IMG/VR virus record: IMGVR_UViG_3300025896_001356
Span: 1 to 64,000 of that record
From: a virus
DNA: 64,000 nt
Direction: 5' to 3' (one strand)
The position numbers and the translations under genes are program-made. The notes beneath the pieces are model-generated. The model was not told the origin of the DNA, ran no database searches, and worked only from the letters and a program-made list of their open reading frames with translations. Positions 890 through 57,676 of this stretch are shown piece by piece (the stretch's first letter is position 1; each line of letters begins with the position of its first letter).

Positions 890-1249
890 ATGCTACTATA
901 CGAAGCTGCTCTCATATTGCTTTTGATTAAGCATTGGTATATTGATTTTGTAATGCAAACTCCTCGCATGGTAGAGGAAAAAGGCCAGTACGGTAAGTGG
1001 TACGGCATCTTGCATAGCTTGCAACATGGTATCGCTACCTTTGCTATTTTTGCATTAGGTGGCCTGCAACTTGCTGCAATCCTTGCAGTAATTGACTTTG
1101 TTACACACTATCATATTGACTGGATTAAAATGAACTATGGTAACAGAGATATTACAACTCCGCAGTTCTGGAATCATCTTGGCATGGATCAGCTGGCACA
1201 TCAGTTAGTTTATATCACAATCGTTTCTGTCTTTGTTCGCCTGGCATGA
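890..1249 (+). CDS. DUF3307-like integral membrane protein
   Basis: 119 aa with three or four hydrophobic segments and the pattern typical of DUF3307: KHWYIDFVMQTPRMVEEKG near the N terminus, then HSLQHG, then DFVTHYHIDW. The conserved His and Asp residues near membrane faces are the family hallmark. The biochemical role is unknown. It occurs in phages and bacteria and probably sits in the host inner membrane. It is the last gene before the radical SAM cluster, 30 nt upstream of it. Confidence 0.65.
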   Translation: MLLYEAALILLLIKHWYIDFVMQTPRMVEEKGQYGKWYGILHSLQHGIATFAIFALGGLQLAAILAVIDFVTHYHIDWIKMNYGNRDITTPQFWNHLGMDQLAHQLVYITIVSVFVRLA

Positions 1250-1279
1250 TAAGTAAAGTGAAAATTACACAAGTTGCCA

Positions 1280-2932
1280 ATGAATATATTTGAAAAAGCA
1301 TTACAAAAACAAACCCCAATACCAGTTGCAAAAAAAGAAATCAAGTTAAGCCCGCGTAAGAATTACGGGTATACTGAATACTTTCAAAAAGCAGAGGTTA
1401 TGCGAGATCGCCTCGGAGAAGTTAGCACCAGCATGTGCCTGGCCAAGTGGTTGCAAGTTAGTATCAATTTGGCCAATGGAACTACGCAAAGTTGTTACCA
1501 TCCGCCAGTACACGCAATTCCACTATTAGAGTTACAGGCCAACCCCAGCGCATTACATAATACAAAATTTAAGAAAGCTGAACGAGCATTGATGCTGGAT
1601 GGCAAACGGCCAAGTGGCTGCGACTATTGCTGGAAGGTCGAAGATGCAGTAACAGAATATGATTCGAGTCATCTATCCGATCGTCATTATAAGTCAAGCG
1701 AGTTTTGGGCAGAACCTTATCTCGAAGAAGTAGTAAGCCAGCCAGCAGACTTTAATATCGTCCCTCGCTACGTTGAAGTAAATTTTAATCAAGCATGCAA
1801 TTTTAAGTGCATGTATTGCAGCCCGCATATTAGTTCAGCTTGGCAAGATGAGATTGAAGAACACGGCCCTTACAAATTAGAGCATACTGAACACAATAAT
1901 CTAAAATCATTGAAAGCTGCTGGGTATATGCCCATTGTTGCAGCCAGTAAAGATAATCCATATGTAACAGCATTTTGGAAATGGTGGCCAACAATTTATC
2001 GCAACTTGCGGGTATTCCGTATGACCGGTGGTGAGCCATTGATGGATAAGAATACCTTTAAGGTACTTGACTATGTAAATGAAAATCCGCACGGACAGTT
2101 GGAACTCAGTATAACCAGCAATATGTGCCCGCCTGATCAAAAGCTATTGGACAAGTTTATCAAACAAGTACAGGCACTTGAAGTAATTCGCACATACGAA
2201 GATAAAGACAACTTTAATGAGTTCTCAGGCAACAACTGGTATGTTGACAAAGGCTTCAAGCACTTTTGGTTATATGTAAGCGTAGACTCTGTTGGTGCGC
2301 AGGCAGAGTACATGCGTACAGGTCTTGACTACAATCGCATGATGGATAATGTACGAAGGTTTCTAAACGAAACACGGTATACTACTGTTAGCTTTATCAA
2401 TACATTCAACATTCTGTCCATTCCAGGTCTGAAGCAGTATTTGCAAATGGTATTGGATTTGCGTAAAGAGTTTGGCAGTGATGCACAGACAGAATTTGAA
2501 ATTGCTCCAGTTTCAACAGAACATGAAATCGCAAACGGCATTGAGCATAAGCAATATAAACAGAAAAAGTTCCAGCGTATATTTTTGGATATACCGTTAC
2601 TAAAGTTCCCATCCTGGTTTGATTCACAGAATGCAGGGCAGTGGGGAATAGATATTGTAGAAGATTGCGTTAAGTTTATGGAAGAAAATGTGCAAGCGAA
2701 GGATTATCATCTAACGTTCGAAGGCTTTAAACCGCACGAGATCCTTAAACTAAAACGCAATTTGACTATTATGAAAGAAACTGCGGCAATTGAAACTCTT
2801 GATGCAAATAAGCGCAAGTTTGCACAGTTTATCGAAGAATACGATCATCGTAGAGACACCAAGTTTGAAACAGTATTTCCCGAGATGGTGGAATACTACG
2901 ACGAGTGTAAGTCGTTAAATAACAGATATTAA
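1280..2932 (+). CDS. Radical SAM protein 1, N-terminal four-Cys domain, subtype A
   Basis: 550 aa from ATG 1280; a TTG at 1274 would add two residues. The radical SAM core shows CNFKCMYC (C173, C177, C180), the CX3CX2C ligands of the [4Fe-4S] cluster that cleaves SAM, and a GGEP SAM-binding motif near residue 250. Upstream sits a second Cys set, CLAKW (C53), SCYHPP (C72) and GCDYCW (C114, C117). This fits an N-terminal twitch/SPASM-like auxiliary cluster domain. A long C-terminal half of unknown structure follows. First and longest of eight related genes; substrate unknown. Confidence 0.88.
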   Translation: MNIFEKALQKQTPIPVAKKEIKLSPRKNYGYTEYFQKAEVMRDRLGEVSTSMCLAKWLQVSINLANGTTQSCYHPPVHAIPLLELQANPSALHNTKFKKAERALMLDGKRPSGCDYCWKVEDAVTEYDSSHLSDRHYKSSEFWAEPYLEEVVSQPADFNIVPRYVEVNFNQACNFKCMYCSPHISSAWQDEIEEHGPYKLEHTEHNNLKSLKAAGYMPIVAASKDNPYVTAFWKWWPTIYRNLRVFRMTGGEPLMDKNTFKVLDYVNENPHGQLELSITSNMCPPDQKLLDKFIKQVQALEVIRTYEDKDNFNEFSGNNWYVDKGFKHFWLYVSVDSVGAQAEYMRTGLDYNRMMDNVRRFLNETRYTTVSFINTFNILSIPGLKQYLQMVLDLRKEFGSDAQTEFEIAPVSTEHEIANGIEHKQYKQKKFQRIFLDIPLLKFPSWFDSQNAGQWGIDIVEDCVKFMEENVQAKDYHLTFEGFKPHEILKLKRNLTIMKETAAIETLDANKRKFAQFIEEYDHRRDTKFETVFPEMVEYYDECKSLNNRY

Positions 2933-2945
2933 AAACAGGAATACT

Positions 2946-4481
2946 ATGCCAAAAAAACATAACGAAACATTTGCCCAATATAAAATTAGAATGGTTGACT
3001 CAACAAGCGATAGCTTTTGTGCAGCCAAGTGGCTCAACGCCACAATCTGGTTAGGCAATGGACAAACAACCAGCTGCCACCATCCATTGGGACATCAGAT
3101 TGATGCAGCTGAATTAGAAACTAACCCATCTGCAATTCACAATACTCCGCATAAGAAACTTATGCGCAAGATGATGCAAGAAGGTACACGTCCACAAGAG
3201 TGCGAGTACTGCTGGAAGATTGAAGATATTGGCCGTGAAAACATCAGCGATCGTGTTTACAAGACAGCCGTGTTCAAAGACGAAGATGTTATTGCAGCGG
3301 CAACTACACACTGGCAACATGACACAATGCTAAAGACATTGGAAGTATCGTTTGATCGTACTTGTAATTTCTCTTGCTCATACTGCAACCCATCGTTCAG
3401 TACCAGCTGGGTAAAGGACATCAAGAAGTTTGGCCCATATCGCAACATCAATGGTGATTCGCGTAGCCACTTCATCAATGCTGCTGACCATGCAATTCCT
3501 ATTGCAGATGAAACTAATCCGTACATCAAAGCATTTTGGCGCTGGTGGGATGAAGGACTATCTGACAGCTTAGATGAGATTCGTATCACAGGCGGCGAGC
3601 CACTTATGGCCCCAGGTGTATGGAAGCTGATGGATTGGTTCAAGAACAATCAAGAACGTTCTACTCGTCCAGACGGCAGCGTATTACGTTATGCCATCAA
3701 CAGTAACCTAGTGCCCAAAGATGACCTAATGGACAAGTTCATTGAGATGAGTAAGTTTGTGCCGCACATGGAAGTATACACCAGTAATGAAAGCGTTGGC
3801 GCACACAGCGAATACATTCGCGATGGTATGGTCTACAGCAAGTGGAAAGAGAATCTACATCGCTTGCACACAGAAGGCAATATTAAAAAGACACACATGA
3901 TGATGACCATCAACAGTTTGTGTCTTGCAAGTATTGTTGAATTCATGGACGAGATCTTAGAGTTTAAGCGCGAACACAAGACTGTATATCCCACAATGAG
4001 CTTGAACATTTTACGATTCCCGTCGTTCCAATCATGTGCTATGTTGCCAACCAGCATTCGTCAACTATACAAGAACAAGTTACAGACATGGTTAGATGAT
4101 CAGATTGCCCGGGATGAAAAAGTTGACTTTATGGGCAATGGCAACATGTGGCCTATCCTAACTCCAATTGAACGTGAACAGGTACAGCGCCTGATTGACT
4201 ATCTTGATGTTATTAAAACTCCGCACAAGAACGTTAAGGACATGGCACAGCAACACTTGGACTTTAAAAACTTCTATACACAATACGATGTGCGCCGTGG
4301 TAAAGACTTCTGTGCCACATTCCCCGAAGAGTTTGTAAACTGGTACAACAGTATTGAAACACCAGTACCGACACGTGACGAAATCCTGGCTGGGACTTAT
4401 AGCGATGAAACCGGAGGCATTCCCGATCATCCACCAGAAGATCCAAGTAAGGAAGAATTCTTTAACCCGGATCTACAATGA
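2946..4481 (+). CDS. Radical SAM protein 2, subtype A
   Basis: 511 aa with an AGGA site before the ATG. It has the subtype A N-terminal Cys set CAAKW (C25), SCHHP (C44), CEYCW (C86, C89), followed by a KIED...SDR linker. Radical SAM ligands are CNFSCSYC (C140, C144, C147) and the SAM motif is ITGGEPL. It is a clear paralogue of radical SAM protein 1, sharing NPSAIHNTPHKK and RPQECEYCW. The C terminus is a charged, Pro-rich tail. Its last 4 bases overlap the next gene (ATGA). Confidence 0.88.
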   Translation: MPKKHNETFAQYKIRMVDSTSDSFCAAKWLNATIWLGNGQTTSCHHPLGHQIDAAELETNPSAIHNTPHKKLMRKMMQEGTRPQECEYCWKIEDIGRENISDRVYKTAVFKDEDVIAAATTHWQHDTMLKTLEVSFDRTCNFSCSYCNPSFSTSWVKDIKKFGPYRNINGDSRSHFINAADHAIPIADETNPYIKAFWRWWDEGLSDSLDEIRITGGEPLMAPGVWKLMDWFKNNQERSTRPDGSVLRYAINSNLVPKDDLMDKFIEMSKFVPHMEVYTSNESVGAHSEYIRDGMVYSKWKENLHRLHTEGNIKKTHMMMTINSLCLASIVEFMDEILEFKREHKTVYPTMSLNILRFPSFQSCAMLPTSIRQLYKNKLQTWLDDQIARDEKVDFMGNGNMWPILTPIEREQVQRLIDYLDVIKTPHKNVKDMAQQHLDFKNFYTQYDVRRGKDFCATFPEEFVNWYNSIETPVPTRDEILAGTYSDETGGIPDHPPEDPSKEEFFNPDLQ

Positions 4482-5869
4482 GCAAAATAATCCCAATCTG
4501 GGGTGATAATGCTCGTGTACATGCAGATAGTCCTAATAAGACATTCTGCATGGCGCCCTGGCGCCACACTTACATTAGCCCACAAAGCGAACGCAGAATG
4601 TGTTGCGCAAGCCGTGAGGAACACTCATTCCAAAAGCAATACATCGATGCTACCAACGACAAAGCCTACGGCGAAGTTTCTGACAGCAAGACTGCATTAG
4701 CAGATTACAATCCAGTTTCTTTAAAAGAACATTGGAACAGTGATTACATGAAAGACATTCGCGTTAAGCTGATGGCTGGCGAAACTATTCCACAGTGTGA
4801 CGTATGCAACAATAATTTGCTTATGGAAGGTAGTTACCGCGGCTGGTTCACAGGTGTGCTATTCCGTGATCAAATTGAAGAAGCTTTCGCTAAAACTGAC
4901 GAGACTGGTTACACCACAATGGAGCCAGTTAGCTTTGACTATCGCTTCAGTAACCTATGCAACTTCAAATGCCGTATGTGTGGCGAACAGTTAAGCAGTA
5001 GCTGGGAAGTCGAAAAGAAAGTACACAAGCTCTGGACTCCAAAAGATCAACCGTTTATGGTGCCTGAAATTAAGAGTGCAATGCAAGACTTTCAAACTAC
5101 AGTGGTAGAACCAGAGTTTAAGGATGCAGTTACTCGTGGTATCATTGAGGAAATGTATTGGGTAGGCGGCGAGCCATTGATGTACGATATCCATTGGTGG
5201 ACACTTGAAGAAATGCTTCGTAATGGCAGTGCTGACAAGTGCTATATGCGTTATAACAGCAATCTAAGTCGTGTGCAGTTTGGAAATAAAAATCTGTTTG
5301 ATTACCTTCCCAAGTACAAAGACTGGATGATGTGCGCAAGTATAGACGGCACAGGTGACATTGTGGAATACATTCGTACAGGTATCAACTGGAACGAATG
5401 GCTTGCTAACTTCAAAGAAGGTGTCGGCTTACCAGGCGGGCAAGATAAGATGAAGTTAGATCTTACTATTACTGCCCCGGGTATGTTTTCTCTACGGGAC
5501 TTGTTTGATCTGAGTTTAGAACTCAATGTAGAGATCATTACTAAGATTACGTTTGCATTTCATGCTGACATTATGTGGACGCCAATGAGCTGGCCGCGTC
5601 ATATCTTAAATCGTCATATTGAAGAATTGATTGCATACATGAGACCATTGGCAGGATCAAAGCAACAAAGTCTTATCACAGCATTAGAGTCAATGCGTGA
5701 TAGTAGACAAACACACAAAGAAGCGTATCCAGATACATTTGCTACAGCAGCTAAGAATGGTAAAGGATGGGTTACGCAGTTAGAAACAATCCGCAAGGAT
5801 GTTAAAACAACTATGTCTTCTATCTACTCTGCTGATCCAGAGTTGCAGGCCTGGTGGGATAACATATGA
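4478..5869 (+). CDS. Radical SAM protein 3, subtype B1
   Basis: 463 aa. The N-terminal set differs from subtype A: CMAPWRH (C24), a vicinal pair MCCAS (C42, C43), then CDVC (C107, C110). The radical SAM triad is CNFKCRMC (C161, C165, C168), followed by a VGGEPL motif. About 50 residues separate the auxiliary Cys set from the core. It most resembles the gene at 11420 (SNLCNFKCRMCG versus NNLCNLSCRTCG, then S-x-x-W). Coupled on both sides by ATGA overlaps, so it is probably made at a fixed ratio with its neighbours. Confidence 0.87.
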   Translation: MSKIIPIWGDNARVHADSPNKTFCMAPWRHTYISPQSERRMCCASREEHSFQKQYIDATNDKAYGEVSDSKTALADYNPVSLKEHWNSDYMKDIRVKLMAGETIPQCDVCNNNLLMEGSYRGWFTGVLFRDQIEEAFAKTDETGYTTMEPVSFDYRFSNLCNFKCRMCGEQLSSSWEVEKKVHKLWTPKDQPFMVPEIKSAMQDFQTTVVEPEFKDAVTRGIIEEMYWVGGEPLMYDIHWWTLEEMLRNGSADKCYMRYNSNLSRVQFGNKNLFDYLPKYKDWMMCASIDGTGDIVEYIRTGINWNEWLANFKEGVGLPGGQDKMKLDLTITAPGMFSLRDLFDLSLELNVEIITKITFAFHADIMWTPMSWPRHILNRHIEELIAYMRPLAGSKQQSLITALESMRDSRQTHKEAYPDTFATAAKNGKGWVTQLETIRKDVKTTMSSIYSADPELQAWWDNI

Positions 5870-7056
5870 GCAAGACATTATGTGTCTTGCCATGGATGCA
5901 CTTGGCAAGTCACCCCAATGGTGGCCAAAGCCTATGCTGCCGTAGCAATCATACAGATGCAGTCAGCTGGGCAATGAAACCTGGCACTACACTTCCTCAG
6001 ACATTTGAGGATGCTACATTGCTCGAGATGTCAAACAGCGAAACATTTGTAAGAGTGCGTGAGCAGATGATTGCTGGCGAACAGCCTGTAGAATGCGAAG
6101 GCTGCTGGAAGGATGAAGCAGCAGGTATTCCAAGCAAGCGAGAATATGAAAACCAACGTTGGCAACATATCATTCCCGAGCTTGAGCAAACAGCAGTACT
6201 AAGCAAACCAAACTATCGTTATGTGGAACTACGATTGGGCAATGTGTGCAACAATGCCTGCGTAACTTGCAATAGCTTTAGCAGCAGTAAATGGTATGCA
6301 GACGAAGTTAAGATCTCTAAGGACTTGCCTTGGTTTAAGTTGCGACCAATGGAAAACTTTAAGTGGCATGATCGCCCGGCGTTTTACGAAGAGCTTGCAA
6401 CATTAAGCAATGATGTAGAAGAAATATATATCAACGGTGGTGAGCCAACGCTTATCAAAGCACACTTTGGTTACCTTGAAAGTCTTATTAAGAGCGGTCA
6501 AGCTGCTAACGTACATCTTGTTTATAGTTTAAACATGATGGACATTCCTGACAAGCTAACAGCATTATGGGAACACTTTAAACGTGTCACTGTAAATTGT
6601 AGCGTGGACGATATTGGTGAACGCAATTTTTATATTCGTTGGCCAAGCGTATGGGAAGATACAGTTCGTAGTATAAGGAAATTAGATTCAATACACACAG
6701 TCGAGTGGCACGTGACGCAAACTGTAAGCATCTATAATATCTTTAGTGTAGATGAACTTGACGCATGGCTACGTAATAACTTTGACAAGTCAACTACACA
6801 TAATTATGTACTGTATCCCGAACATCTAAGTTTAGCTGCAATACCCAACAATGTCAAAGATCAATTGCGATGGAAGTATCAAAATTCGTTTAACGAAGAT
6901 AAACGCAACGAGCTGATGGCAAAGTTAGACATGCCGTATCGTCCAGAGCTAACTATACAAGCGAAGGAGTTTGTTGAAGCTCTTGATCGCAGCCGTAATT
7001 TAGATTATAAAAATTACGTACCTGAATTAGGAAAGATATTAAATGGAACAAGTTGA
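5866..7056 (+). CDS. Radical SAM protein 4, subtype B2
   Basis: 396 aa. N-terminal Cys set: CVLPWMH (C6), SLCCRS (C24, C25), CEGC (C77, C80), then WKDEAAGIPSKR. Radical SAM ligands are CNNACVTC (C128, C132, C135), and INGGEP is the SAM motif. Closest in layout to the gene at 10175, which has CWVDEKNGFKSKR at the same place. The 3' end overlaps the methyltransferase start by 14 bases. No substrate can be inferred. Confidence 0.86.
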   Translation: MSKTLCVLPWMHLASHPNGGQSLCCRSNHTDAVSWAMKPGTTLPQTFEDATLLEMSNSETFVRVREQMIAGEQPVECEGCWKDEAAGIPSKREYENQRWQHIIPELEQTAVLSKPNYRYVELRLGNVCNNACVTCNSFSSSKWYADEVKISKDLPWFKLRPMENFKWHDRPAFYEELATLSNDVEEIYINGGEPTLIKAHFGYLESLIKSGQAANVHLVYSLNMMDIPDKLTALWEHFKRVTVNCSVDDIGERNFYIRWPSVWEDTVRSIRKLDSIHTVEWHVTQTVSIYNIFSVDELDAWLRNNFDKSTTHNYVLYPEHLSLAAIPNNVKDQLRWKYQNSFNEDKRNELMAKLDMPYRPELTIQAKEFVEALDRSRNLDYKNYVPELGKILNGTS

Positions 7057-7654
7057 TAAAAATGATTACAACCAGGAGCCAATTTCGTGGCAACAGTATC
7101 TTGATGAGATTGGACCACTCTTCAGATTCTGTACAAATGCAACAGTATTAGAAATTGGGCCATATTATGGACATCATACTAAACTCATTGAGACTTTTGG
7201 TCCCGAAGCAATTACGTTAGTTGAAAACAATGCAGATGCAGTTAACGTATTACGTCAAAGATTCGAACATGAGATTATACATGCTGACATAAACGATTTT
7301 CTTAAAGTAAATCGACATTTTGATGTTGTAGTTTGTTGCGGAGTATTGTATCATTTGCATTCGCCTGTGCATCTATTGGAGTTAATTGTTAACATGTCAA
7401 CCCCAAAAATTGTAATATTAGAATCAGTTAATGTGTCAACTATTGAAATGACTGTTGAGCCTGACAATAACCCGGGTATGCGATACATTGACGAAAGTTG
7501 GAAATCAGCGAAGTGTAATATGGTGTTGCCATTTAATACAATTATTAGCATTATGAAAACACTTGGGTACAAACTTGCAGACCACCATATGCAAGGTTAT
7601 CCTAACATTATATCTAAACAAAACGTACAATCAGCAGTTTTTATACAACAATGA
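7043..7654 (+). CDS. Class I SAM-dependent methyltransferase
   Basis: 203 aa with a Rossmann-fold methyltransferase layout: motif I VLEIGPYYGHHT near residues 35-46, an acidic residue after the next strand (LVENN), HADINDF, then VVCCGVLYHLHSP near 110. The last resembles the post-motif region of small-molecule and CmoB-like methyltransferases. It splits the radical SAM array into two blocks of four and overlaps genes on both sides, so it very likely acts in the same pathway. Acceptor unknown. Confidence 0.82.
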   Translation: MEQVDKNDYNQEPISWQQYLDEIGPLFRFCTNATVLEIGPYYGHHTKLIETFGPEAITLVENNADAVNVLRQRFEHEIIHADINDFLKVNRHFDVVVCCGVLYHLHSPVHLLELIVNMSTPKIVILESVNVSTIEMTVEPDNNPGMRYIDESWKSAKCNMVLPFNTIISIMKTLGYKLADHHMQGYPNIISKQNVQSAVFIQQ

Positions 7655-8940
7655 CAATTACACAAATACCAATTCAGATTGATCATAGCTTCTGTGCAGC
7701 AAAGTGGCTTATGGTCACCATGCACTTTGGCATGGGCGAGAATCACTCTTGTTATCATCCTCCTATCCATCGTTGGGATTTAGATGATGTCAAAGCTAAC
7801 CCTGGTGCATTGCACAACAGCAAGCACAAGATTAAACAGCGTGAAATGATGCTGACTGGCATCCGTCCCAAGGAATGCAACTACTGCTGGAACATGGAAG
7901 ACATTGATTCCACAGCAGTAAGTGATCGTAAACGTTTTACCAACGAAACCTGGGCAATTGAACGTCGCCAAGAGATATTATCTGCGCCTGCTGACGCCTA
8001 CATTGGTCCAGCACACTTAGAAATATCATTTGCCAACGTATGCAACTTTGCCTGCGCCTACTGTAGTCCAGGTCAAAGTAGTACATGGGAAACGGAAATC
8101 CGTAAACACGGTTCATACCCAATTGAAGATGCGACTGTGCATAAGGATAAAATGCACGATATGATTCCTGAAGATAATAATCCGTACATTGATGCATTTT
8201 GGGAATGGTTGCCGTCGATCTATTCTGGCCTACGTTATCTACGTATTACAGGTGGCGAACCTTTGGCTACTCGTAACTTTATGAAGTTGTTGGACTACGT
8301 TGCAGAGAATCATAACCCTGATTTAACGTTAGTGGTAAACACTAACTTATGTGTGCCTGAAAAGAACTTAGATTTATTCTTTACCAAAGCAACTGCATTA
8401 CTTGAAGCCAAGACTATTAAAGGGCTTGAAGTTTATACCAGTATGGATACATGGGGACCACAAGCCGAGTACATTCGTGACGGATTAGATATTGAGAAGT
8501 GGGAAGCAACTGTTCGTAAGGTCAGTACCACGTTCGGAGTTCCGATTCGAGTCATGGTCACATTTGGATTGCTTAGTGTGTTTAACTTCCAAACCTTTGT
8601 TGAAAAGGTCATAGAAATGCGCTCACAAGGCATAGATATCATGTTTAATTGCTCCAGACTTGTAGATCCTAAGCAGTTTGACCTTAGAATATTGCCTGAC
8701 GAATGCGATCACTACTTTGATGCAGTAAATAATTTTATTGTGGATAATAATGACATTGTTAAGGTAGAAACTGAAACATGGGCAATGGTTTATCAGTTCT
8801 GGAAAGCCAGACACACTACAATGACAGTGATCGAACGTGATCATCGACGGGATCAGTTTGCCAAGTTCACAGCCGAATACGACAAACGTAGAACATTGAA
8901 CTTCAGCGCAACATTTCCGGAGTTGGCAGGATGGATTTAA
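7651..8940 (+). CDS. Radical SAM protein 5, subtype A
   Basis: 429 aa. Subtype A N-terminal set CAAKW (C15), SCYHPP (C34), CNYCW (C76, C79), the shared NPGALHNSKHK stretch, then SDRKR. Radical SAM triad CNFACAYC (C131, C135, C138) followed by SPGQSSTW, and ITGGEPL. Very similar in layout to proteins 1 and 2 but shorter at the C terminus. It starts by ATGA overlap with the methyltransferase. Confidence 0.88.
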   Translation: MTITQIPIQIDHSFCAAKWLMVTMHFGMGENHSCYHPPIHRWDLDDVKANPGALHNSKHKIKQREMMLTGIRPKECNYCWNMEDIDSTAVSDRKRFTNETWAIERRQEILSAPADAYIGPAHLEISFANVCNFACAYCSPGQSSTWETEIRKHGSYPIEDATVHKDKMHDMIPEDNNPYIDAFWEWLPSIYSGLRYLRITGGEPLATRNFMKLLDYVAENHNPDLTLVVNTNLCVPEKNLDLFFTKATALLEAKTIKGLEVYTSMDTWGPQAEYIRDGLDIEKWEATVRKVSTTFGVPIRVMVTFGLLSVFNFQTFVEKVIEMRSQGIDIMFNCSRLVDPKQFDLRILPDECDHYFDAVNNFIVDNNDIVKVETETWAMVYQFWKARHTTMTVIERDHRRDQFAKFTAEYDKRRTLNFSATFPELAGWI

Positions 8941-10178
8941 TTCATAATATGAATCAAGCACTTGAAGAATTAAAAAAATCAACAAGTCAAACTTTGTGTT
9001 TAGCAAAGTTTCACGAAGCTACTATCTGGCTATATAGTGGCCGCATTGCTAGTTGCCATCATACTCCTTTAGTACCATTGGGTGATAGTGTACTCACATT
9101 CTTTAATCCAACTGAAAAACGTAAGCAACAAGAATCAATGCTAGCTGGCAACAAGCCGTCTGAATGTTCATACTGCTGGAAATTAGAAGACAAGAATCTT
9201 ATCAGTGATAGATATAAAAAATCAATCAGCTTCAAATCTACACTGACTGCTGTTGAGTATTTGGATCCTACTTATAATTTTAAACCTAAGGCATTAGAAT
9301 TATCATTTCAGAATCTTTGCAATTTGGCCTGTAGCTATTGCAGTGCAGAATATAGTTCTAAGTGGGCAGATGATCTAACAAAAAACGGTAATTATACTAA
9401 GATTACAACTGACAAACGCTTGCATTATCAACGCGGAGTAGACAATCATACCCCAGTTGATATGACTTTATTTTGGGATTGGTTTAATACAGTCGCTGAT
9501 GGAATTGAATCGCTTCGTATTACTGGCGGCGAACCATTGCTCCATGAAGAAACATTTAAAATGCTTGATATCATGCAGGAAATCAATCCAAACATTGAGT
9601 TTGTAGTACATACAAATCTTTGTCAAAAACCTGTAATTATTAGTCGATTTGTTGATAAAATATCAAAGTTCAATAATGTGCGTGTAAACATAAGCAATGA
9701 AAGTGCAGGCGACGTAGCTGAATTTATACGTGATGGAATGAATTACAATGAATGGTTAGCGAATCTTAAAGTACTATCAAATAGCAACGCCAACCTAAGT
9801 GTCAGTACTACTATCACTGCATTAGCATTAACAAGTCTAGATCAACTATACACTGATGTCATTGCGATTCGCAATGCGGCTAACCAAAAAGTATACATTT
9901 CGATTAACTTTGCTACATATCCAGAATTCCAATCAATTAGTTGTCTGACTCAGGATGAATTGCAGTTTTATTATAATAAGTACATCGTGTTCTTTGATAA
10001 CATCAAGGATGATCTATTAGAGATTGAACACAGCCACATAATAAGACTATTAAAAATGATGCAATCGGATGAAGATGTAAATCAGCCAGTGCTTCGGAAA
10101 GATTTGAATTCTTTCTTTGAACAGTACTCTGTCAGACGTAATAAGGTTAACCTAATAGGAACAATTGGATTGAAATGA
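8931..10178 (+). CDS. Radical SAM protein 6, subtype A
   Basis: 415 aa from ATG 8931, which lies inside the end of the previous gene; ATG 8949 is an alternative. Cys set CLAKF (C23), SCHHTP (C42), CSYCW (C79, C82), then ISDRYKK. The triad is CNLACSYC (C130, C134, C137), with ITGGEPLL as the SAM motif. It lacks the NPxAxHN stretch in its exact form (FFNPTEKRKQQ), so it is the most divergent subtype A copy. The next gene starts by ATGA overlap. Confidence 0.87.
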   Translation: MDLIHNMNQALEELKKSTSQTLCLAKFHEATIWLYSGRIASCHHTPLVPLGDSVLTFFNPTEKRKQQESMLAGNKPSECSYCWKLEDKNLISDRYKKSISFKSTLTAVEYLDPTYNFKPKALELSFQNLCNLACSYCSAEYSSKWADDLTKNGNYTKITTDKRLHYQRGVDNHTPVDMTLFWDWFNTVADGIESLRITGGEPLLHEETFKMLDIMQEINPNIEFVVHTNLCQKPVIISRFVDKISKFNNVRVNISNESAGDVAEFIRDGMNYNEWLANLKVLSNSNANLSVSTTITALALTSLDQLYTDVIAIRNAANQKVYISINFATYPEFQSISCLTQDELQFYYNKYIVFFDNIKDDLLEIEHSHIIRLLKMMQSDEDVNQPVLRKDLNSFFEQYSVRRNKVNLIGTIGLK

Positions 10179-11383
10179 ATAATATACCAGTTAACAAGAT
10201 ATGCAGTATGCCTTGGGTTGGGTTTAGCAATGATCCCGACGGTAAAGTGCGGCCGTGCTGTTTGTACAAAGGTCATATATCAGAGAATGATAAACCAATG
10301 TATGTGCAGCAGCACAGTGTAGATGACATTTTTAAAAGCAAATACATGCGTGACTTGCGCGATGATTTTAGAAATGGTAATCAGCCTTCGGCCTGTTCCA
10401 CCTGCTGGGTAGATGAAAAAAATGGATTTAAAAGCAAACGATTGATTGCCAATGAAATCTGGAAACATCATCAAATTGACTATATGGAAGAACCAGTTCT
10501 TCCAGTTGAATTTCAGATGATTATAAACAATTCCTGCAATCTAAAATGTCGGTCTTGCACGCCTAGCCATAGTACCCAATGGCAAATTGAAAATGTTAAA
10601 ATTAATGGAAGTTCAGGTTACAATATGCCGCATGGCCAAGCAGGCGATGACGATAGTGTATTATGGACAAAGCGTCACGAATGGTATGCAAGTGTGCAAC
10701 GATTGGAAATAGTAGGCGGCGAACCTTTTTATGTTAAACAATGGCACCAAATATTTGAAGAACTAATCGAATTAGGTTATGCAAAGAATATCGTACTGAA
10801 TCTGAGTTCGAATTGTACATTGTTTTTTGGTGGCTTAGTTGAAAGGATGACTCAAAATTTCAAATCTGTTGGAATTGGATTAAGTATAGATGGCACTGGC
10901 TCCGAATACGAATATCTGCGTCATCCAGGTAATTGGGACACTGTCTACGCTAACATGAAAAAGTATCATGCCTTAATGGAAAAGTACCCCAATTTACATG
11001 TACAAGTGAGTTATACAATCGGCTGGTTAAATGCACTGGATCTAACCATTATGCACGAACTAGTACGAACAGACTTTCCTAAGTTTAGGATATGGAATAA
11101 CATCATTCATTTTCCCGAGCATATGGCAATTTGTTCAGCGTCAGACGATATAAAACAGGAAATAATGGACAATTGGGACGCATATAAATGGGATCAACAT
11201 TATACATCAATCATTGACGGCGTCAAAACTTTTATGAATAGTAAATCAATCAGCACACAACAATTTAAAAGTTATGTTGATATTCTGCTCAGCAGAGATG
11301 CCATCCGAAACGAAAACTTATATGAATCCTTTCCGAAACTTGTTAAATTTTTACCAACACAATCTGATAACTCTGACTCATAA
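10175..11383 (+). CDS. Radical SAM protein 7, subtype B2
   Basis: 402 aa. N-terminal set CSMPWVG (C10), PCC (C28, C29), CSTC (C74, C77), then WVDEKNGFKSKR as in protein 4. Core triad CNLKCRSC (C121, C125, C128), SAM motif VGGEPF. The SIDGTGSEYEYLRHPGNW stretch is a typical mid-barrel segment of radical SAM enzymes with SPASM/twitch extensions. A 36-base gap follows that holds a 12-codon micro-ORF. Confidence 0.87.
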   Translation: MNNIPVNKICSMPWVGFSNDPDGKVRPCCLYKGHISENDKPMYVQQHSVDDIFKSKYMRDLRDDFRNGNQPSACSTCWVDEKNGFKSKRLIANEIWKHHQIDYMEEPVLPVEFQMIINNSCNLKCRSCTPSHSTQWQIENVKINGSSGYNMPHGQAGDDDSVLWTKRHEWYASVQRLEIVGGEPFYVKQWHQIFEELIELGYAKNIVLNLSSNCTLFFGGLVERMTQNFKSVGIGLSIDGTGSEYEYLRHPGNWDTVYANMKKYHALMEKYPNLHVQVSYTIGWLNALDLTIMHELVRTDFPKFRIWNNIIHFPEHMAICSASDDIKQEIMDNWDAYKWDQHYTSIIDGVKTFMNSKSISTQQFKSYVDILLSRDAIRNENLYESFPKLVKFLPTQSDNSDS

Positions 11384-11384
11384 T

Positions 11385-11423
11385 ATGCAAGTACATAAAT
11401 TAAAACAACAAGGCATATTATGA
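11385..11423 (+). other. 12-codon micro-ORF coupled to the next radical SAM gene
   Basis: An ATG just after the stop of radical SAM protein 7 opens a 12-residue frame (MQVHKLKQQGIL). Its TGA overlaps the ATG of the next gene (ATGA). It could be a translational coupler or chance; there is no ribosome site directly upstream. Reported because a second micro-ORF sits on the other side of the same gene. Confidence 0.2.
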
Positions 11424-12757
11424 GCGAGCAGTCATTTAATCCAACTGATCTTGCAGCAAGCAGCGATACATTTTGTATCTTGCCCTGGATGCACCAGTAC
11501 ATTGGCACACGCGGAGATATTAAACCATGCTGTGCGTTTGAGCATACGTTAGAAATTGGAAATTTAAAAAAAGAAACATTGGCTGATACTTGGAACAATG
11601 ACAAAACCAAAAATGTTCGTCTCGAATTGCTCAATGGAAAAATTCCCAAAGGTTGCGAGATCTGCGACCGCAAAGGAAAAGGTATGGCATTGGCCGACGC
11701 AGCCAACAGTTGGTTTTATGACACCAATGCAGAATCTGGTGTCAAATTTGATATTATGCAACAGCTAGCATCAACTCAGTCTGACGGTACAGTGGCCGAC
11801 CACAAGTTATTTTATATGGATACACGTTTTAATAATCTTTGTAATTTATCGTGCCGTACATGCGGTCCGCACTTTAGTACAACTTGGGCAGCCGAACGTA
11901 AAAAGATTGCCATCTTGACAAATATGCCTTTGCGAGATGACGGAATTGATACAGGTTTGCAATTTGCTGGAAAAACAGTAAATGATGCTTACGAACAATT
12001 GTTGCCACATTTTCCCAATCTCACACGCATTTATTTCGCAGGCGGCGAACCAATGATGCAAGTGGAGCACTACAACACGCTTAAAGAATTAATAAGGACT
12101 GGCCGCACTGACGTTGAGCTTTGGTACAATGCAAATTTCAGTAGATTGACCTTAGGTAAAGATGATGCCATTGAACTTTGGAAAAATTTTAAATCTGTCA
12201 GAATGATGGCTAGCCTGGATGGGTCATATTTAAAAGGGGAGTATTGGCGTAATGGCTTACATTGGAGCGATGCAATACGTCATCGCGAGAAAATGCTAGC
12301 TGAGGCGCCACATGTTGAATTTTATGTTTCCTTTGTGGTAAGTTGGCCAAATATTTTTAATCTATTAGAATTTCACAAAGAATGGTTCGAATTAGGTTAT
12401 ATTAGTAGTGTTGAACACTTTAGTCTGAATCTATTAGAAGGGCCAGCAATGTATAGTTTGCAAAATTTGCCCGAATGGAAAAAAATAAAAATTAAAGCAG
12501 CAATAACCAACCACATTGTATGGATTAATAGCAATTCATTAAATGGCAATTCTACTATTGCATTTGCACTAAACAGATTCGTCGAAAGTATGATGCAGCC
12601 AGCAGTTGATCTGCAGAAAAGTCTGACTAAGTTCGCTATAGAAACCAAAATGCTGGATAACGTACGAGATCAGAATTTTTGGGAAGTATATCCTGAGCAT
12701 TTAGATCTTAAAGAATATATGCAACAAGAATTTAACATAGTATGGGAAAATCTATAA
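11420..12757 (+). CDS. Radical SAM protein 8, subtype B1
   Basis: 445 aa. N-terminal set CILPWMH (C19), PCC (C37, C38), CEIC (C79, C82). The core triad CNLSCRTC (C141, C145, C148) is preceded by YMDTRFNNL, very like the FDYRFSNL of protein 3. SAM motif AGGEP. The spacing between auxiliary and core Cys also matches protein 3, so these two form a pair. AAGG about 7 nt before the ATG may serve as ribosome site. The stop and the following micro-ORF overlap as TAATG. Confidence 0.87.
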   Translation: MSEQSFNPTDLAASSDTFCILPWMHQYIGTRGDIKPCCAFEHTLEIGNLKKETLADTWNNDKTKNVRLELLNGKIPKGCEICDRKGKGMALADAANSWFYDTNAESGVKFDIMQQLASTQSDGTVADHKLFYMDTRFNNLCNLSCRTCGPHFSTTWAAERKKIAILTNMPLRDDGIDTGLQFAGKTVNDAYEQLLPHFPNLTRIYFAGGEPMMQVEHYNTLKELIRTGRTDVELWYNANFSRLTLGKDDAIELWKNFKSVRMMASLDGSYLKGEYWRNGLHWSDAIRHREKMLAEAPHVEFYVSFVVSWPNIFNLLEFHKEWFELGYISSVEHFSLNLLEGPAMYSLQNLPEWKKIKIKAAITNHIVWINSNSLNGNSTIAFALNRFVESMMQPAVDLQKSLTKFAIETKMLDNVRDQNFWEVYPEHLDLKEYMQQEFNIVWENL

Positions 12758-12810
12758 TGGGTGAAGCAATAAAATGTGCGTTCCTCATTGTAAATGCAGC
12801 TTTTGAATGA
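12757..12810 (+). CDS. 17-residue micro-ORF between radical SAM and SGNH genes
   Basis: The frame MGEAIKCAFLIVNAAFE starts by TAATG overlap with radical SAM gene 8 and ends by ATGA overlap with the SGNH gene. It exactly bridges what would otherwise be a 49-base gap. Such two-sided coupling is what one expects of a translated frame. It has one Cys and a hydrophobic middle. It could be a coupler, a regulatory peptide or, more speculatively, a peptide substrate for the radical SAM enzymes. Only its position supports it. Confidence 0.35.
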   Translation: MGEAIKCAFLIVNAAFE

Positions 12811-13763
12811 GTGAATATATAAAATACTTGAGTTTTTTAAAAAATCCAAAGTCTTTGGAGGAACTCTGGCTGGTCCAACACTGGCTTGAAATTGCACCAG
12901 CCAGTTCTAGCAATAATATGCAGAAATTTTTTATCAGGCCAGCAAATCAGCATGAAATTGATAACTCGGCTCAAGCCTATGCCAATGGTCGTACTACAAA
13001 ATCGTCGCCTCCGGAATATAAGGTTGATCGTTACGGATTTAGAATAGCGTCAGGTTTCGCAGGATTAGACACAATTGATGATTCAGACCACTTGCATATT
13101 GGATTTTTTGGTTGCTCTTTCACATATGGTATCGGATTAGAGTCTGAAGAAATTTGGATAGAAGGGGTAGCCAGTGCATTATCTGTACAACTCAATAGGC
13201 CTGTAACAATTTATAATTTTGGCGAAGGCGGTGCCGGAGTACAGAGAATAGCAGATATATTCCGCCAGGTAACACAGTTTAGGAAATTAGACTATGCATT
13301 TTTTTTACTTCCAGATCATCAACGTTACCAGTATCCGGTTATTGTCACAGACCATCAACCAACCACAAGCCCAGTTAAACTTATAAATGTAGTTAATGGA
13401 TTTAATCCAACTCGCATCAGCAATGAACAACAGTACCAGTTAATAACTCGAAATAAATCCATGTCCGAACTCGACGATGTCAACCGACTGATCAATGAAT
13501 TGCAGATCATTGAACTTATTGCCAAGGTAAACAACGTCAAAATATTCTATTCAGCCTGGCGAGCTCCTACTTACGAAATATTGTCAACACACATTGATAA
13601 TAGTGCAATGTTACCATTTTTTGGTTCTTCGCCAGGCACTAGCAGAGACGGAAACTGGACAGATTTTGCTGCCGACGGCAGTCATCCTGGGCCAAAATTA
13701 AATCAACATTGGGTAAATATAGTACAGCAATATTTCATTGAACACAGAAAAGGATTAGATTAA
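12807..13763 (+). CDS. SGNH/GDSL-type hydrolase or acyltransferase 1
   Basis: 318 aa. After a roughly 90-residue N-terminal extension, block I of the SGNH fold appears as FFGCSFTYGIG (nucleophile S104). A block II-like NFGEGGAG follows, and block V is DGSHPG near residues 290-295 (Asp-His of the triad). SGNH enzymes add or remove acyl groups, often on sugars. The gene sits between radical SAM genes 8 and 9 and overlaps the latter by TAATG, which ties it to the same pathway. No signal peptide, so cytoplasmic. Confidence 0.8.
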   Translation: MSEYIKYLSFLKNPKSLEELWLVQHWLEIAPASSSNNMQKFFIRPANQHEIDNSAQAYANGRTTKSSPPEYKVDRYGFRIASGFAGLDTIDDSDHLHIGFFGCSFTYGIGLESEEIWIEGVASALSVQLNRPVTIYNFGEGGAGVQRIADIFRQVTQFRKLDYAFFLLPDHQRYQYPVIVTDHQPTTSPVKLINVVNGFNPTRISNEQQYQLITRNKSMSELDDVNRLINELQIIELIAKVNNVKIFYSAWRAPTYEILSTHIDNSAMLPFFGSSPGTSRDGNWTDFAADGSHPGPKLNQHWVNIVQQYFIEHRKGLD

Positions 13764-14968
13764 TGAGCCAGATGTACGGTAAAGTAACCCGGTTACACAT
13801 AGAATTATCAAGCAGGTGCAATGCCAGCTGCCCGTGTTGCAGCAGAAATTTTTGCGGCGGCCCAGTTGTGCCTGACCTAGATCTCACTGAGCTATCGCTT
13901 GCTGATATAAAACAAATGATTCCAAATGAGTTAGCGGCACAATTACATGCTATTAATTTTTGTGGCAACATAGGCGACCCGGGTATGGCAACAGATTTAA
14001 TAGAAATATTAGAGCATTTTCGAGACCAGTCGCCAAACATTATACTGCAAGTTAGAACCAATGGCGGCATGCGTTCAGCAGAATTTTGGACCAAATTGGG
14101 TAACTTTTTTAAAAATCACCAAGCCAACAATATGGATCCAATTCAGGCCGATGGCGGCCATTTGTTTGGTAGATCAAACGTCGTTTTCAGTGTCGACGGA
14201 CTTGAAGAAACTAATCATATATACCGCCGCGGGGTAATTTGGGAAAAATTAATCAGAAACATGCAAGCATATAGCGATACTGGTGCAACTGCAACTTGGG
14301 AATGGTTATTGTTTGATCATAATAAACACCAAATTGACGAAGCACATGCATTGGCCAAGAAATTAAATTTTGATCTTTTATTCAAGAATCCAATGGGGTT
14401 CACTGAACATGATGGTATTTTCAAACCAATACCAGTGTATAGCAAAGCTGGCAAGTACGAGTATAGTATTTGGCCAAATGGCTACTCCGGTGAAAAAATA
14501 GTCGGCGCAGATAGTTCGTTTGATTTTGTCAATCATTACATTACTCAAAAACAAAATAAAAACATACCCGTTATTAACGAATTTAGTAAAAGTTTAGAAA
14601 ACAATACAATAACATGTCGGTCAACTGCTAAATTGGATCAGGGTGAAGTGTACATTTCTGCAGGTGGCTATATGTTACCTTGCTGCTATCTAGGAAGTGT
14701 GTTTGGTCAGAATCAATCATCATATTCACGCTACCAGTTCAATTCACTGATGCAAGACTATGGATTAGAGAAATTCAATCTGAGAACCCGGCCAATGACG
14801 GATATTTTAAAAGGGCCAGAATTTTCCAAATTTTTCTTAGATGGTTGGTCAGCAGATACAATCAAAAACGGTAAATTATTATATTGTATAGAAACATGCG
14901 GACAATCAGAATTAAATTCTATTGATAAACTATATCCTAATAAAATTATCAGTAAAGATTTAACATGA
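13763..14968 (+). CDS. Radical SAM protein 9 with C-terminal SPASM-like Cys set
   Basis: 401 aa. Unlike the other eight it begins almost directly with the radical SAM core: LHIELSSRCNASCPCC (C19, C23, C26). Its additional Cys lie at the C terminus: TCRSTAK, then GGYMLPCCYLG, then LLYCIETCG. This is the usual place for SPASM/twitch auxiliary clusters, as in peptide- and sugar-modifying radical SAM enzymes. The canonical GGEP is replaced by CGNIGDPG. It is therefore a different lineage added to the cluster. Confidence 0.85.
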   Translation: MSQMYGKVTRLHIELSSRCNASCPCCSRNFCGGPVVPDLDLTELSLADIKQMIPNELAAQLHAINFCGNIGDPGMATDLIEILEHFRDQSPNIILQVRTNGGMRSAEFWTKLGNFFKNHQANNMDPIQADGGHLFGRSNVVFSVDGLEETNHIYRRGVIWEKLIRNMQAYSDTGATATWEWLLFDHNKHQIDEAHALAKKLNFDLLFKNPMGFTEHDGIFKPIPVYSKAGKYEYSIWPNGYSGEKIVGADSSFDFVNHYITQKQNKNIPVINEFSKSLENNTITCRSTAKLDQGEVYISAGGYMLPCCYLGSVFGQNQSSYSRYQFNSLMQDYGLEKFNLRTRPMTDILKGPEFSKFFLDGWSADTIKNGKLLYCIETCGQSELNSIDKLYPNKIISKDLT

Positions 14969-15123: not shown

Positions 15124-15828
15124 ATGAAAATTGGAATATTTGGTGATAGCTTTGCAGTATACTACCCAGAAAAGGCGCCCAGAACGGCCTGGGCTACTGT
15201 CTTAGAAGATAAATTTAAATGGGATGTTACTAACTACGCCTGGGGGGCAACAAGTTTATTTTGGACTTATACGCAATTATTAAATAATATAAACGACGTT
15301 GATATTGTCATAATGAGTATTACTCAGCAAGGTAGATTATACAGTCATGATCCAAAAGCGTGTACTGGTCTGTCTAATTATGGATCAGTTAATGCTCGGC
15401 TTGCTGGATTGAGTAGTAGTCATGCAGATTATGAAATTCTCAATGCCGCACTGCAATATTTTGTGCATTTGTCCAATGATGATTTTAATAGGTATGTACA
15501 TGTCAAAATCATTGACGACATAAAGAAACTCTGCAACTTGCAGGGTAAACGATTGATTTTAATTCCCGGATTTGATGAAGATATAAACTCTCAAGATATA
15601 TTTCAGTCTGCACTAATAAATGTGTCGGTCACTGAGTGCTGGGCGCATTTTAAGCAGCCGTACGTCATTGAAGCGCCTACACGTAATTGTCATATGACAG
15701 ATGCAAACAATAGTATACTAGCTCAACTGTTGGATCAAATATTACGTGGCAATCGAACAGAGGTCAAACTCACTGATTTTAATTTTGAAAAAATATCAGA
15801 TTTATCTTCCCAATGGATTTTACCATAA
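15124..15828 (+). CDS. SGNH/GDSL-like protein 2
   Basis: 234 aa. Block I is IFGDSFAVYY (S9) and a block II-like glycine is in YAWGATS. The expected block V Asp-x-x-His seems degenerate (NCHMTDANN, with Asn before Cys-His), so catalysis is uncertain. No signal peptide. The stop codon forms TAATG with the carbamoyltransferase start, a strong coupling. It may hydrolyse or transfer acyl groups on the product of the neighbouring enzymes, or simply bind a substrate. Confidence 0.7.
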   Translation: MKIGIFGDSFAVYYPEKAPRTAWATVLEDKFKWDVTNYAWGATSLFWTYTQLLNNINDVDIVIMSITQQGRLYSHDPKACTGLSNYGSVNARLAGLSSSHADYEILNAALQYFVHLSNDDFNRYVHVKIIDDIKKLCNLQGKRLILIPGFDEDINSQDIFQSALINVSVTECWAHFKQPYVIEAPTRNCHMTDANNSILAQLLDQILRGNRTEVKLTDFNFEKISDLSSQWILP

Positions 15829-17285
15829 TGATATTAGGTATTACAGCACAAAATCATGACGCCAGTTTAGCACTAATAGATGGTGATCGTATTGTATGGG
15901 CAGCACACGCAGAACGCTACAGCAGAGTTAAAAACGATCCGCTATTAAATGCAGCCATGCTGGCAGATATGCGATGCTACGGCGAGCCAACTGAATTAGT
16001 ATGGTTTGAAAAGCCCGTACAAAAGGATTTACGACGATTGATTTCCGGACAACGTCCTTGGCATGTTAGTCCTAAAGATCAATTACGTGCAGTGGGATTA
16101 GATCACTTGCCTATCGACTATGTTGGCCATCATCAAAGCCATGCTGCCGCAGGATACTATACAAGTGGGTTCAAAGACGCTGCAATCTTAGTAGTAGATG
16201 CAATCGGCGAATGGGACACAGTTAGTATTTGGCATGCTGAAGGTGCCGATATGAAGCGCAAGTGGTCAAAGAAGTATCCTAACAGCGTAGGATTGTTTTA
16301 CACAGCAATGACACAGTGGTTAGGATTAAAGCCCAATGAAGAAGAATACATCCTAATGGGCATGGCTGCTTATGGAAAGCCTCGACACGCAGAAGAACTA
16401 TTAGAAACGTTCTTTACCAAGTGGGCGCCACCCGACTTTAAGCTAAAGCACAATCTACATCGTGGTTGCGCTTGGTGGACTCCTAAAGACTCTACTGCAA
16501 CCAAGTTTGATATTGCTGCCAGTGTACAGTACATAATTGAAATGTATTTGACAGAGACAATTGATTGGATGTCTGGAGAAATTGATTCAGATAATTTAGT
16601 CTTTATGGGCGGCGTTGCATTAAATTGTGTGGCAAATGCATTAATTGCACGAGAAAACTATTTTAATAATTTCTGGATTATGCCTAATCCCGGTGACAGC
16701 GGCAGTGCAATTGGTGCAGTTGCAGCCCATACTCGACGGCATTTAAAATGGGAAACCATTTACCTAGGCACTGATATCAAACAAGATGTTGATGTCAAGT
16801 CAATTGTTAAAGAACTCAAAAAGGGCAATGTGGTAGCAGTAGCAAATGGTCGTGCTGAGTTTGGCCCACGTTCATTAGGTAATCGTAGTTTACTGTGCGA
16901 TCCACGTGGTGCAGATGCCAAGCCCCGCATGAATACTATTAAAAAGCGTGAACAATTTCGTCCATTTGCGCCGGCTGTGTTAGCAGAACACGCAGACACA
17001 TATTTTGACATGCCTGTTGCAGAAAGCCCTTATATGCAGTTTGTTGCAGAATGTAGAACGCCAGACACATTGCCGGGTATTTGTCACGTAGATAACTCTA
17101 GTAGAGTGCAAACAGTTACCGAGCAAGATAATCCTGTGTTTCGTAGTATATTAGAAGCATGGGAAACTGCAACAGGTTGCCCTATATTAATGAATACCAG
17201 TTTAAACATTCGTGGCGAACCGCTAGTAAATACCTGGGCAGACGCACTGCGCTTTCAAACTTTACACAAGGTAAATGTATATTAA
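15828..17285 (+). CDS. NodU/TobZ/CmcH-family carbamoyltransferase
   Basis: 485 aa from ATG 15828, chosen because MILGITAQNHDASLALIDGD is the family's N terminus and the start overlaps the upstream stop. Motifs in order: HHQSHAAAGYYTSGF (Kae1/YgjD-like metal site), DAIGEWDT, MGGVALNCVAN, GRAEFGPRSLGNRSLL, RPFAPAVL, NTSLNIRGEPLV. These enzymes make carbamoyl adenylate from carbamoyl phosphate and ATP and pass the carbamoyl group to a hydroxyl of a sugar or antibiotic. Full length and intact. It supports a small-molecule or glycan-modifying role for the cluster. Confidence 0.9.
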   Translation: MILGITAQNHDASLALIDGDRIVWAAHAERYSRVKNDPLLNAAMLADMRCYGEPTELVWFEKPVQKDLRRLISGQRPWHVSPKDQLRAVGLDHLPIDYVGHHQSHAAAGYYTSGFKDAAILVVDAIGEWDTVSIWHAEGADMKRKWSKKYPNSVGLFYTAMTQWLGLKPNEEEYILMGMAAYGKPRHAEELLETFFTKWAPPDFKLKHNLHRGCAWWTPKDSTATKFDIAASVQYIIEMYLTETIDWMSGEIDSDNLVFMGGVALNCVANALIARENYFNNFWIMPNPGDSGSAIGAVAAHTRRHLKWETIYLGTDIKQDVDVKSIVKELKKGNVVAVANGRAEFGPRSLGNRSLLCDPRGADAKPRMNTIKKREQFRPFAPAVLAEHADTYFDMPVAESPYMQFVAECRTPDTLPGICHVDNSSRVQTVTEQDNPVFRSILEAWETATGCPILMNTSLNIRGEPLVNTWADALRFQTLHKVNVY

Positions 17286-22563: not shown

Positions 22564-22986
22564 TTGAGTGATTCAAACGTATACATTGTAAGCCCTCCAA
22601 CTTTATACATGCCAGCAGGCGGGTTGGCATTTTGCTTAATAAGTAATGATCCTACATGGCAAGATTCAATTATCAACTATTTAGAAGCAAACATTCAGAA
22701 TCAATTAACATTCTATGCAACTGAAACAAGCACCAAGGATCCTAAAGCATGGGTATGGTATTGGCATATAGTTGACAACTGCGGCATGATCTTTGTTGAT
22801 CTTTCGAGCAGTACAGAGCATGAAGTTAGAATGGCGATGGCAATGGCCAAATTGGATATGCCAGTTATCTTTCATGTTAGGCCTGGCAACGACGAGTTTG
22901 TGGCATTGCTTAATGCAGTAGATATTCCACACTTCGAAGATATGGAACATTTGGCAACGTTATTGGAGAACGGCCTTGGTGGATAA
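22564..22986 (+). CDS. Conserved-looking protein of unknown function (140 aa)
   Basis: Uses a TTG start with AAGAAAG upstream. [15 protein letters not shown], then [31 protein letters not shown], suggest a small Rossmann-like alpha/beta domain recalling nucleoside deoxyribosyltransferase or TIR-like folds. No catalytic set is clear. The 3' end overlaps the clpX start. Confidence 0.5.
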
Positions 22987-57675: not shown

Positions 57676-57676
57676 T

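What the first reader, a model, noticed from the sequence alone, without database searches (positions are those of the whole stretch)
1280..14968. Nine radical SAM genes in one 13.7 kb phage operon
Nine separate genes carry the CX3CX2C radical SAM triad; eight also carry a four-Cys set in front of it. Eight of the starts overlap or lie within 40 nt of the previous stop, so this is one coordinated unit. Phages with one radical SAM gene are common; from memory, T4-like Campylobacter phages CP220/CPt10 were reported to hold several. Nine in tandem with distinct sequences suggests a multi-step modification pathway or a family of enzymes with different targets. The substrate is unknown and could be a surface glycan, a nucleobase, a peptide or a lipid.
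Basis: partly seen in the sequence, partly recalled or inferred. Interest (0 to 1): 0.95.

Follow-up and report, generated by a model that had tools for sequence, protein, structure and literature searches.

The report
Phage radical-SAM array, probably glycan-tailoring
A T4-like phage carries nine radical-chemistry enzyme genes in one 13.7 kb block, eight of them old, still-functional copies of one enzyme family that in other viruses and bacteria sits among sugar-decorating genes, so the block most likely remodels a glycan on the host or on the virus particle.

Summary
Nine ORFs between 1274 and 14968 are radical SAM (rSAM) proteins on a phage record. Eight belong to one named family, N_Twi_rSAM (NF033640, E 1e-76 to 1e-99), whose four-Cys auxiliary cluster lies in front of the CX3CX2C core. 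That N-terminal part matches the C-terminal twitch domain of BtrN, so the domain order is permuted. The ninth is a different rSAM with its extra Cys at the C-terminus. The array is not a one-off: 13 contigs share the gene order and 30 other viral records hold 1-17 copies each. Most paralogs have their own clade, several spanning freshwater-type and marine-type phages, and core members show dN/dS of 0.02-0.06: distinct, non-redundant enzymes. The substrate is not shown, but context favours glycans. A GT-A-like glycosyltransferase is the next gene to N_Twi in 17 of 27 independent viral groups, SGNH hydrolases recur, and carbamoyltransferases co-localise with N_Twi in Bdellovibrionota (20 of 49 within 20 kb, 2 expected). 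No lipid-carrier flippase was found in 20 records, so the phage probably edits host sugars or its own virion glycoproteins. Multi-rSAM T4-like phages were reported before; the CP220 rSAMs scanned here are a different family.

The parts
890..1249 (+). DUF3307 protein, 24 nt before the first rSAM ORF; also directly upstream of the array in relative G013
   Evidence: PF11750 E 7e-12; G013 synteny
1274..2932 (+). N_Twi radical SAM 1 (CNFKCMYC; 552 aa, ATG at 1280)
   Evidence: NF033640 E 8e-83; Cys 55,74,116,119 + 175,179,182
2946..4481 (+). N_Twi radical SAM 2 (CNFSCSYC; 511 aa)
   Evidence: NF033640 E 2e-87; dN/dS 0.03 vs G013
4478..5869 (+). N_Twi radical SAM 3 (CNFKCRMC; 463 aa)
   Evidence: NF033640 E 2e-88; clade shared with marine-type loci, SH-aLRT 100
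5866..7056 (+). N_Twi radical SAM 4 (CNNACVTC; 396 aa); the protein modelled by AlphaFold2
   Evidence: NF033640 E 3e-97; model pLDDT 95, pTM 0.92
7043..7654 (+). SAM-dependent methyltransferase inside the array
   Evidence: PF13489 E 2e-9
7651..8940 (+). N_Twi radical SAM 5 (CNFACAYC; 429 aa)
   Evidence: NF033640 E 3e-84; 88% identical relatives
8931..10178 (+). N_Twi radical SAM 6 (CNLACSYC; 415 aa)
   Evidence: NF033640 E 7e-76, PF04055 E 2e-12
10175..11383 (+). N_Twi radical SAM 7 (CNLKCRSC; 402 aa)
   Evidence: NF033640 E 7e-86; SPASM PF13186 at residues 10-78 E 1.5e-7
11420..12757 (+). N_Twi radical SAM 8 (CNLSCRTC; 445 aa)
   Evidence: NF033640 E 1e-99; SPASM PF13186 at residues 19-82 E 5e-10
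12807..13763 (+). SGNH/GDSL-type hydrolase, recurrent partner family V7
   Evidence: V7 profile E 1e-48; PF00657 below its cut-off
13763..14968 (+). Ninth radical SAM, different family (V13), extra Cys at the C-terminus
   Evidence: V13 profile 476 bits; only 32 bits to NF033640, cut-off 170; Cys 285,307,308,375,379
15124..15828 (+). Second SGNH-type protein, partner family V28
   Evidence: V28 profile E 2e-78
15813..17285 (+). NodU/CmcH/TobZ-type O-carbamoyltransferase
   Evidence: PF16861 E 9e-55, PF02543 E 3e-46; also beside the array in most related records
17286..18047 (+). Possible third SGNH-like protein (weak)
   Evidence: V28 profile E 1e-6; no Pfam hit

Best explanation
The block is a phage-encoded sugar-tailoring cassette. 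Eight paralogous N_Twi rSAM enzymes, each with an N-terminal twitch cluster and a radical SAM core, make radical C-H changes (for example dehydrogenation, epimerisation or deoxygenation) on different positions or different sugars of a glycan. The ninth rSAM, a methyltransferase, SGNH acyl hydrolases/transferases and an O-carbamoyltransferase add further marks. The glycan is either host surface polysaccharide (or its precursors), changed during infection to block competing phages, or a glycan on the phage's own virion proteins. Shown: family, permuted domain order, conserved cluster ligands, conserved gene order, separate purifying selection, linkage of the family to glycosyltransferases and carbamoyltransferases. 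Inferred: that the substrate is a sugar, the reaction types, and the biological purpose.
For: The N-terminal four-Cys region matches the twitch domain of BtrN (4m7t, E 4e-7, query 7-82 to BtrN 183-261), and other profile or fold hits include the sugar-acting BlsE and the twitch dehydrogenase SpeY. A glycosyltransferase-like family V0 (GT-A fold: PBCV-1 capsid glycosyltransferase 2p6w probability 1.00, RmlT, WrtF) is in 18 and the next gene in 17 of 27 independent viral groups; 84 V0 genes are followed by N_Twi on the same strand. Other partners: UDP-sugar dehydrogenase, GDP-mannose dehydratase-like epimerase, GT7-type transferase, DegT aminotransferase, SGNH hydrolases. A carbamoyltransferase over the cut-off is in 12 of 20 viral records, this one included. 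In 29 bacterial genomes, nearly all Bdellovibrionota, 20 of 49 carbamoyltransferases lie within 20 kb of N_Twi genes, 2.0 expected; a control aminotransferase gives 4 against 4.5. Paralogs form separate clades; core dN/dS 0.02-0.06.
Against: No product or substrate is known. V0, V1 and the other glycosyltransferases are absent from this 77 kb fragment and V0 also from its closest relatives' fragments G011-G013, so for this very phage the glycan link rests on the SGNH proteins, the carbamoyltransferase and homology. G011-G013 also lack a carbamoyltransferase. The rSAM core is equally near peptide-modifying enzymes (SkfB, SuiB, anSME). DegT co-localisation in bacteria is only weak (8 against 3.65 expected). 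V0 fold matches have modest TM-scores (about 0.2-0.35).
Confidence: 0.55

Rival explanations
1. The enzymes modify proteins: the tail-fibre and other virion proteins, or a ribosomal peptide, in the manner of SPASM/twitch peptide maturases.
For: Closest whole-fold matches include SkfB, SuiB, anSME; tail-fibre-like structural genes V3/V6 lie a few genes upstream in many loci.
Against: No room for a precursor peptide inside the array: gaps between array genes are mostly negative in 13 genomes. No NCBIfam peptide-maturase model reaches its cut-off. The recurrent neighbours are sugar enzymes.
Confidence: 0.2
2. The array hypermodifies phage DNA nucleobases, with glycosyl- and carbamoyl-transferases decorating the base.
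For: rSAM enzymes, carbamoyltransferases and glycosyltransferases can take part in phage base modification (general knowledge); eight of 20 related records hold a thymidylate synthase-family gene.
Against: Thymidylate synthase is ordinary in T4-like phages (general knowledge) and was not found in the window record or the G011-G013 fragments. The same coupling of N_Twi with carbamoyltransferase exists in bacterial genomes.
Confidence: 0.07
3. Viperin-like production of modified nucleotides acting against other phages or host defence.
For: Weak pVip and viperin hits to the core.
Against: Hits are 18-37 bits, far below the NCBIfam viperin cut-off of 180; viperins lack the N-terminal twitch domain and are not known as arrays of paralogs (general knowledge).
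Confidence: 0.04
4. An auxiliary metabolic gene set for cofactors such as haem or iron-sulphur metabolism, as such genes are often annotated in viromes.
For: Virome papers interpret SPASM rSAM genes as ahbD or list viral rSAM genes with Fe-S metabolism (PMC9301287, PMC5332604).
Against: NirJ-type hits are 22-25 bits against cut-offs above 500; no other gene of such a pathway was seen in the block.
Confidence: 0.05

Closest known systems
NCBIfam NF033640 N_Twi_rSAM (twitch domain-containing radical SAM protein)
   Same: Eight of the nine proteins score 256-334 bits over full length, cut-off 170
   Different: The model names a domain arrangement only; function, arrays and partners are not part of it
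BtrN and SpeY (twitch radical SAM dehydrogenases of aminocyclitol antibiotics)
   Same: Twitch domain with an auxiliary cluster; profile match of the auxiliary domain to BtrN E 4e-7; SpeY among the fold matches
   Different: Twitch is N-terminal here and C-terminal in BtrN; substrate not tested
Campylobacter phage CP220/CPt10 radical SAM modules
   Same: T4-like phage; five clustered rSAM genes with an amidinotransferase and two nucleotide-diphospho-sugar transferases
   Different: In the first 100 kb of CP220 no protein exceeds 24 bits to the N_Twi profile
Host recognition cluster of pelagimyophages (PMC7029224)
   Same: Hypervariable island of T4-like phages with tail fibres, glycosyltransferases and inserted rSAM cassettes
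   Different: The passages read give no family, order, orthology or partner analysis; in the window the array is not beside tail-fibre genes
T4-like TARA_ERS488813_N000010 (PMC5332604)
   Same: 183 kb marine T4-like genome with 12 rSAM genes
   Different: Read by its authors with Fe-S metabolism; family and arrangement not given in the passage

Membership tests
NF033640 N_Twi_rSAM | Score above curated cut-off of 170 bits | tested here: met
   Eight proteins 255.9-333.9 bits; the ninth, 31.9 bits, is not a member
NF033640 N_Twi_rSAM | Auxiliary-cluster Cys in front of CX3CX2C | tested here: met
   Present in all eight; C6, C77, C80 invariant and C25 at least 90% in 85 aligned proteins
Twitch/SPASM radical SAM enzymes | Homology of the auxiliary domain | tested here: met
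   BtrN twitch E 4e-7; PF13186 hits in 3 of 8
Twitch/SPASM radical SAM enzymes | Auxiliary domain C-terminal to the core | tested here: not met
   Domain is N-terminal in all eight: a permuted variant, not a classical member
CP220-type phage radical SAM module | rSAM proteins homologous at family level | tested here: not met
   24 bits or less in the first 100 kb of CP220; remaining 77 kb not scanned
Prokaryotic viperin (pVip) | Score above NCBIfam cut-off (180 bits) | tested here: not met
   Best 30.8 bits
RiPP maturation system | Precursor peptide gene beside the maturase | tested here: not met
   Array genes overlap or abut; no intergenic space for one inside the array. Distant precursors not excluded
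Phage glycan-modification cassette | Altered glycan product | not testable with these tools
   No chemistry available

The most novel reading that the evidence does not exclude
A viral enzymatic editing line: a set of ancient, specialised, permuted-twitch radical SAM enzymes, up to 17 per genome, that rewrites one glycan at many positions by radical chemistry, with a constant core set and a faster-changing middle set (dN/dS 0.15-0.26) that varies the final structure, for instance in phage-phage competition.
Probability: 0.3. Interest if true: 0.87.

Novelty: new variant of a known kind. Interest (0 to 1): 0.62.

Why it matters
Radical SAM enzymes usually act singly or in small groups. A conserved set of eight to seventeen non-redundant ones in a phage, with a recurring glycosyltransferase partner and a parallel in Bdellovibrionota, would give a large unexplored pool of sugar-editing radical enzymes and a specific, testable account of a gene group that virome studies list under haem or Fe-S metabolism.

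Tried and rejected
Viperin, haem/NirJ, RiPP maturase and DNA modification were considered and ranked low (see rivals). CP220 homology was tested and rejected for the part of the genome scanned. Alignment A1 was too diverse to drive a collection scan; A2 was used instead. F15, F12 and single N_Twi queries against cultured phages found nothing, or only Vibrio phages K566/K567 with three N_Twi-like places each and a 7,955-base single-cell marine record. Profile search of V0 against solved structures gave only spurious ankyrin and transporter matches, so its fold was predicted and compared instead. No Wzx-type flippase in 20 viral records. Two keyword searches for this family in papers returned nothing.

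Full report
Observation. Nine ORFs with one CX3CX2C triad each lie at 1274-14968 on the plus strand, overlapping or nearly abutting, with a methyltransferase (7043-7654) and an SGNH-type hydrolase (12807-13763) between them. The record is an IMG/VR virus record of 77,160 bases of which the window is bases 1-64000; a T4-type clamp loader and tail-fibre proteins confirm a T4-like phage.

Family. Eight proteins match NCBIfam NF033640 over full length at 256-334 bits. The ninth scores 32 bits there and instead belongs to a separate family, V13, with extra Cys at its C-terminus. In an alignment of 85 N_Twi proteins from the window and other loci, C6, C77, C80, C128, C132, C135, the GGE motif and a few further residues are invariant and C25 is at least 90% conserved. 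A profile of this family matches solved radical SAM structures in the core, and its first 80 residues match the C-terminal twitch of BtrN at E 4e-7, so the auxiliary domain is permuted to the front. AlphaFold2 gives a confident model (pLDDT 95) whose nearest solved folds are SkfB, viperin-like enzymes, SuiB, anSME and BlsE, with modest TM-scores.

Distribution and order. Thirteen contigs, the window included, share the order first (about 521 aa), second (510), third (465), fourth (392), fifth (428), a variable middle, then members of the 437 and 417 aa families, followed in most by the ninth-type rSAM, SGNH proteins and a carbamoyltransferase. In the window the last two are swapped and one further copy lies between them. 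Thirty other viral records hold 1-17 NF033640 matches. In 121 viral loci most have one or two copies, so the large array is an expansion of a widespread gene. In a tree of 109 proteins the window's paralogs 1-6 and 8 each fall in a separate clade with counterparts from G013, G014, G015 and G020; paralogs 1-4 also group with marine-type loci such as L009, L011, L038, L122 and L207; paralog 7 groups with L011 and L009 only (short tree search, some open forks). Habitat words here rest on my reading of sample groups and on MAG names, not on metadata. Core members show dN/dS 0.02-0.06, and four middle members of G014 against G030 show 0.15-0.26; some synonymous distances are large or saturated.

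Partners. Family V0 is in 93 of 121 viral loci; after grouping loci that share N_Twi proteins at 65% identity, it is in 18 of 27 groups and is the next gene to N_Twi in 17. The matches of its predicted structure at the top of the list are GT-A-type glycosyltransferases and related nucleotidyltransferases. Other partners are the GT-like V1 (assigned by sequence motifs only), SGNH proteins V7, UDP-sugar dehydrogenase, epimerase/dehydratase, GT7 transferase, DegT, amidinotransferase-like proteins and carbamoyltransferase. Bacterial relatives are almost all in Bdellovibrionota MAGs; 29 such genomes hold 1-20 copies. There, 20 of 49 carbamoyltransferases lie within 20 kb of a listed N_Twi gene against 2.0 expected, a control aminotransferase 4 against 4.5, DegT 8 against 3.65. 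Not all N_Twi matches were listed, so the true counts may be higher. The genomes were chosen because they hold N_Twi, which does not by itself place carbamoyltransferases near it.

Limits for this phage. V0, V1 and the other transferases were not found in the 77 kb record, nor V0 in the G011-G013 fragments; all are fragments. In the window the array is beside DUF3307, nuclease and Clp genes, not tail-fibre genes.

Mechanism and rivals. The best-supported reading is a glycan-tailoring cassette (0.55). No Wzx-type flippase was found in 20 records, which argues against the phage exporting a polysaccharide of its own and leaves host-glycan editing or virion glycoprotein synthesis. I cannot separate these two. 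Protein or peptide modification is the main rival (0.2).

Literature. CP220 and CPt10 have 11 and 12 rSAM proteins (PMC2853527). CP220's five-gene module also contains an amidinotransferase and two nucleotide-diphospho-sugar transferases, a striking parallel, but the proteins in the 100 kb scanned are not N_Twi. A 183 kb T4-like marine genome has 12 rSAM genes (PMC5332604). Pelagimyophage host recognition clusters hold glycosyltransferases, which the authors read as O-chain modification against coinfection, and rSAM cassettes (PMC7029224). So rSAM-rich T4-like phages are known; what is added here is the family, its permuted domain order, the ordered ancient paralogs, the V0 partner and the Bdellovibrionota link.

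Noticed in passing
L048 16463-20000 continuing into L049 (G014 76463-81160); equivalents in G015, G016, G028, G030: Very long proteins (about 850-2255 aa) downstream of the array, made of many degenerate repeats with FDFSWxPD-type motifs and a V0-like glycosyltransferase domain near the C-terminus (E 1e-16 to 1e-21).
   Followed up: partly
window 22976-24199 and 57584-59890: Phage-encoded ClpX (zf-C4_ClpX, AAA_2) and a ClpA-type ATP-dependent protease (phrog_4871); relative G013 also has a ClpS-like ORF (by eye).
   Followed up: no
window 38865-40007: ParB-like partition protein (phrog_1033, weak).
   Followed up: no
L008 7552-8565 and 11057-12016 (record 70452-71465 and 73957-74916): By eye, a UV-damage endonuclease-like ORF and a tripartite tricarboxylate transporter substrate-binding-like ORF in the part of the record outside the window; not tested by profile.
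   Followed up: no
bacterial genomes G031-G059: Bdellovibrionota-type genomes carry up to 20 N_Twi copies each, sometimes in divergent small clusters.
   Followed up: partly
literature PMC9301287: 261 viral 'ahbD' haem genes reported from the Baltic may include N_Twi proteins under another name; not checked.
   Followed up: no
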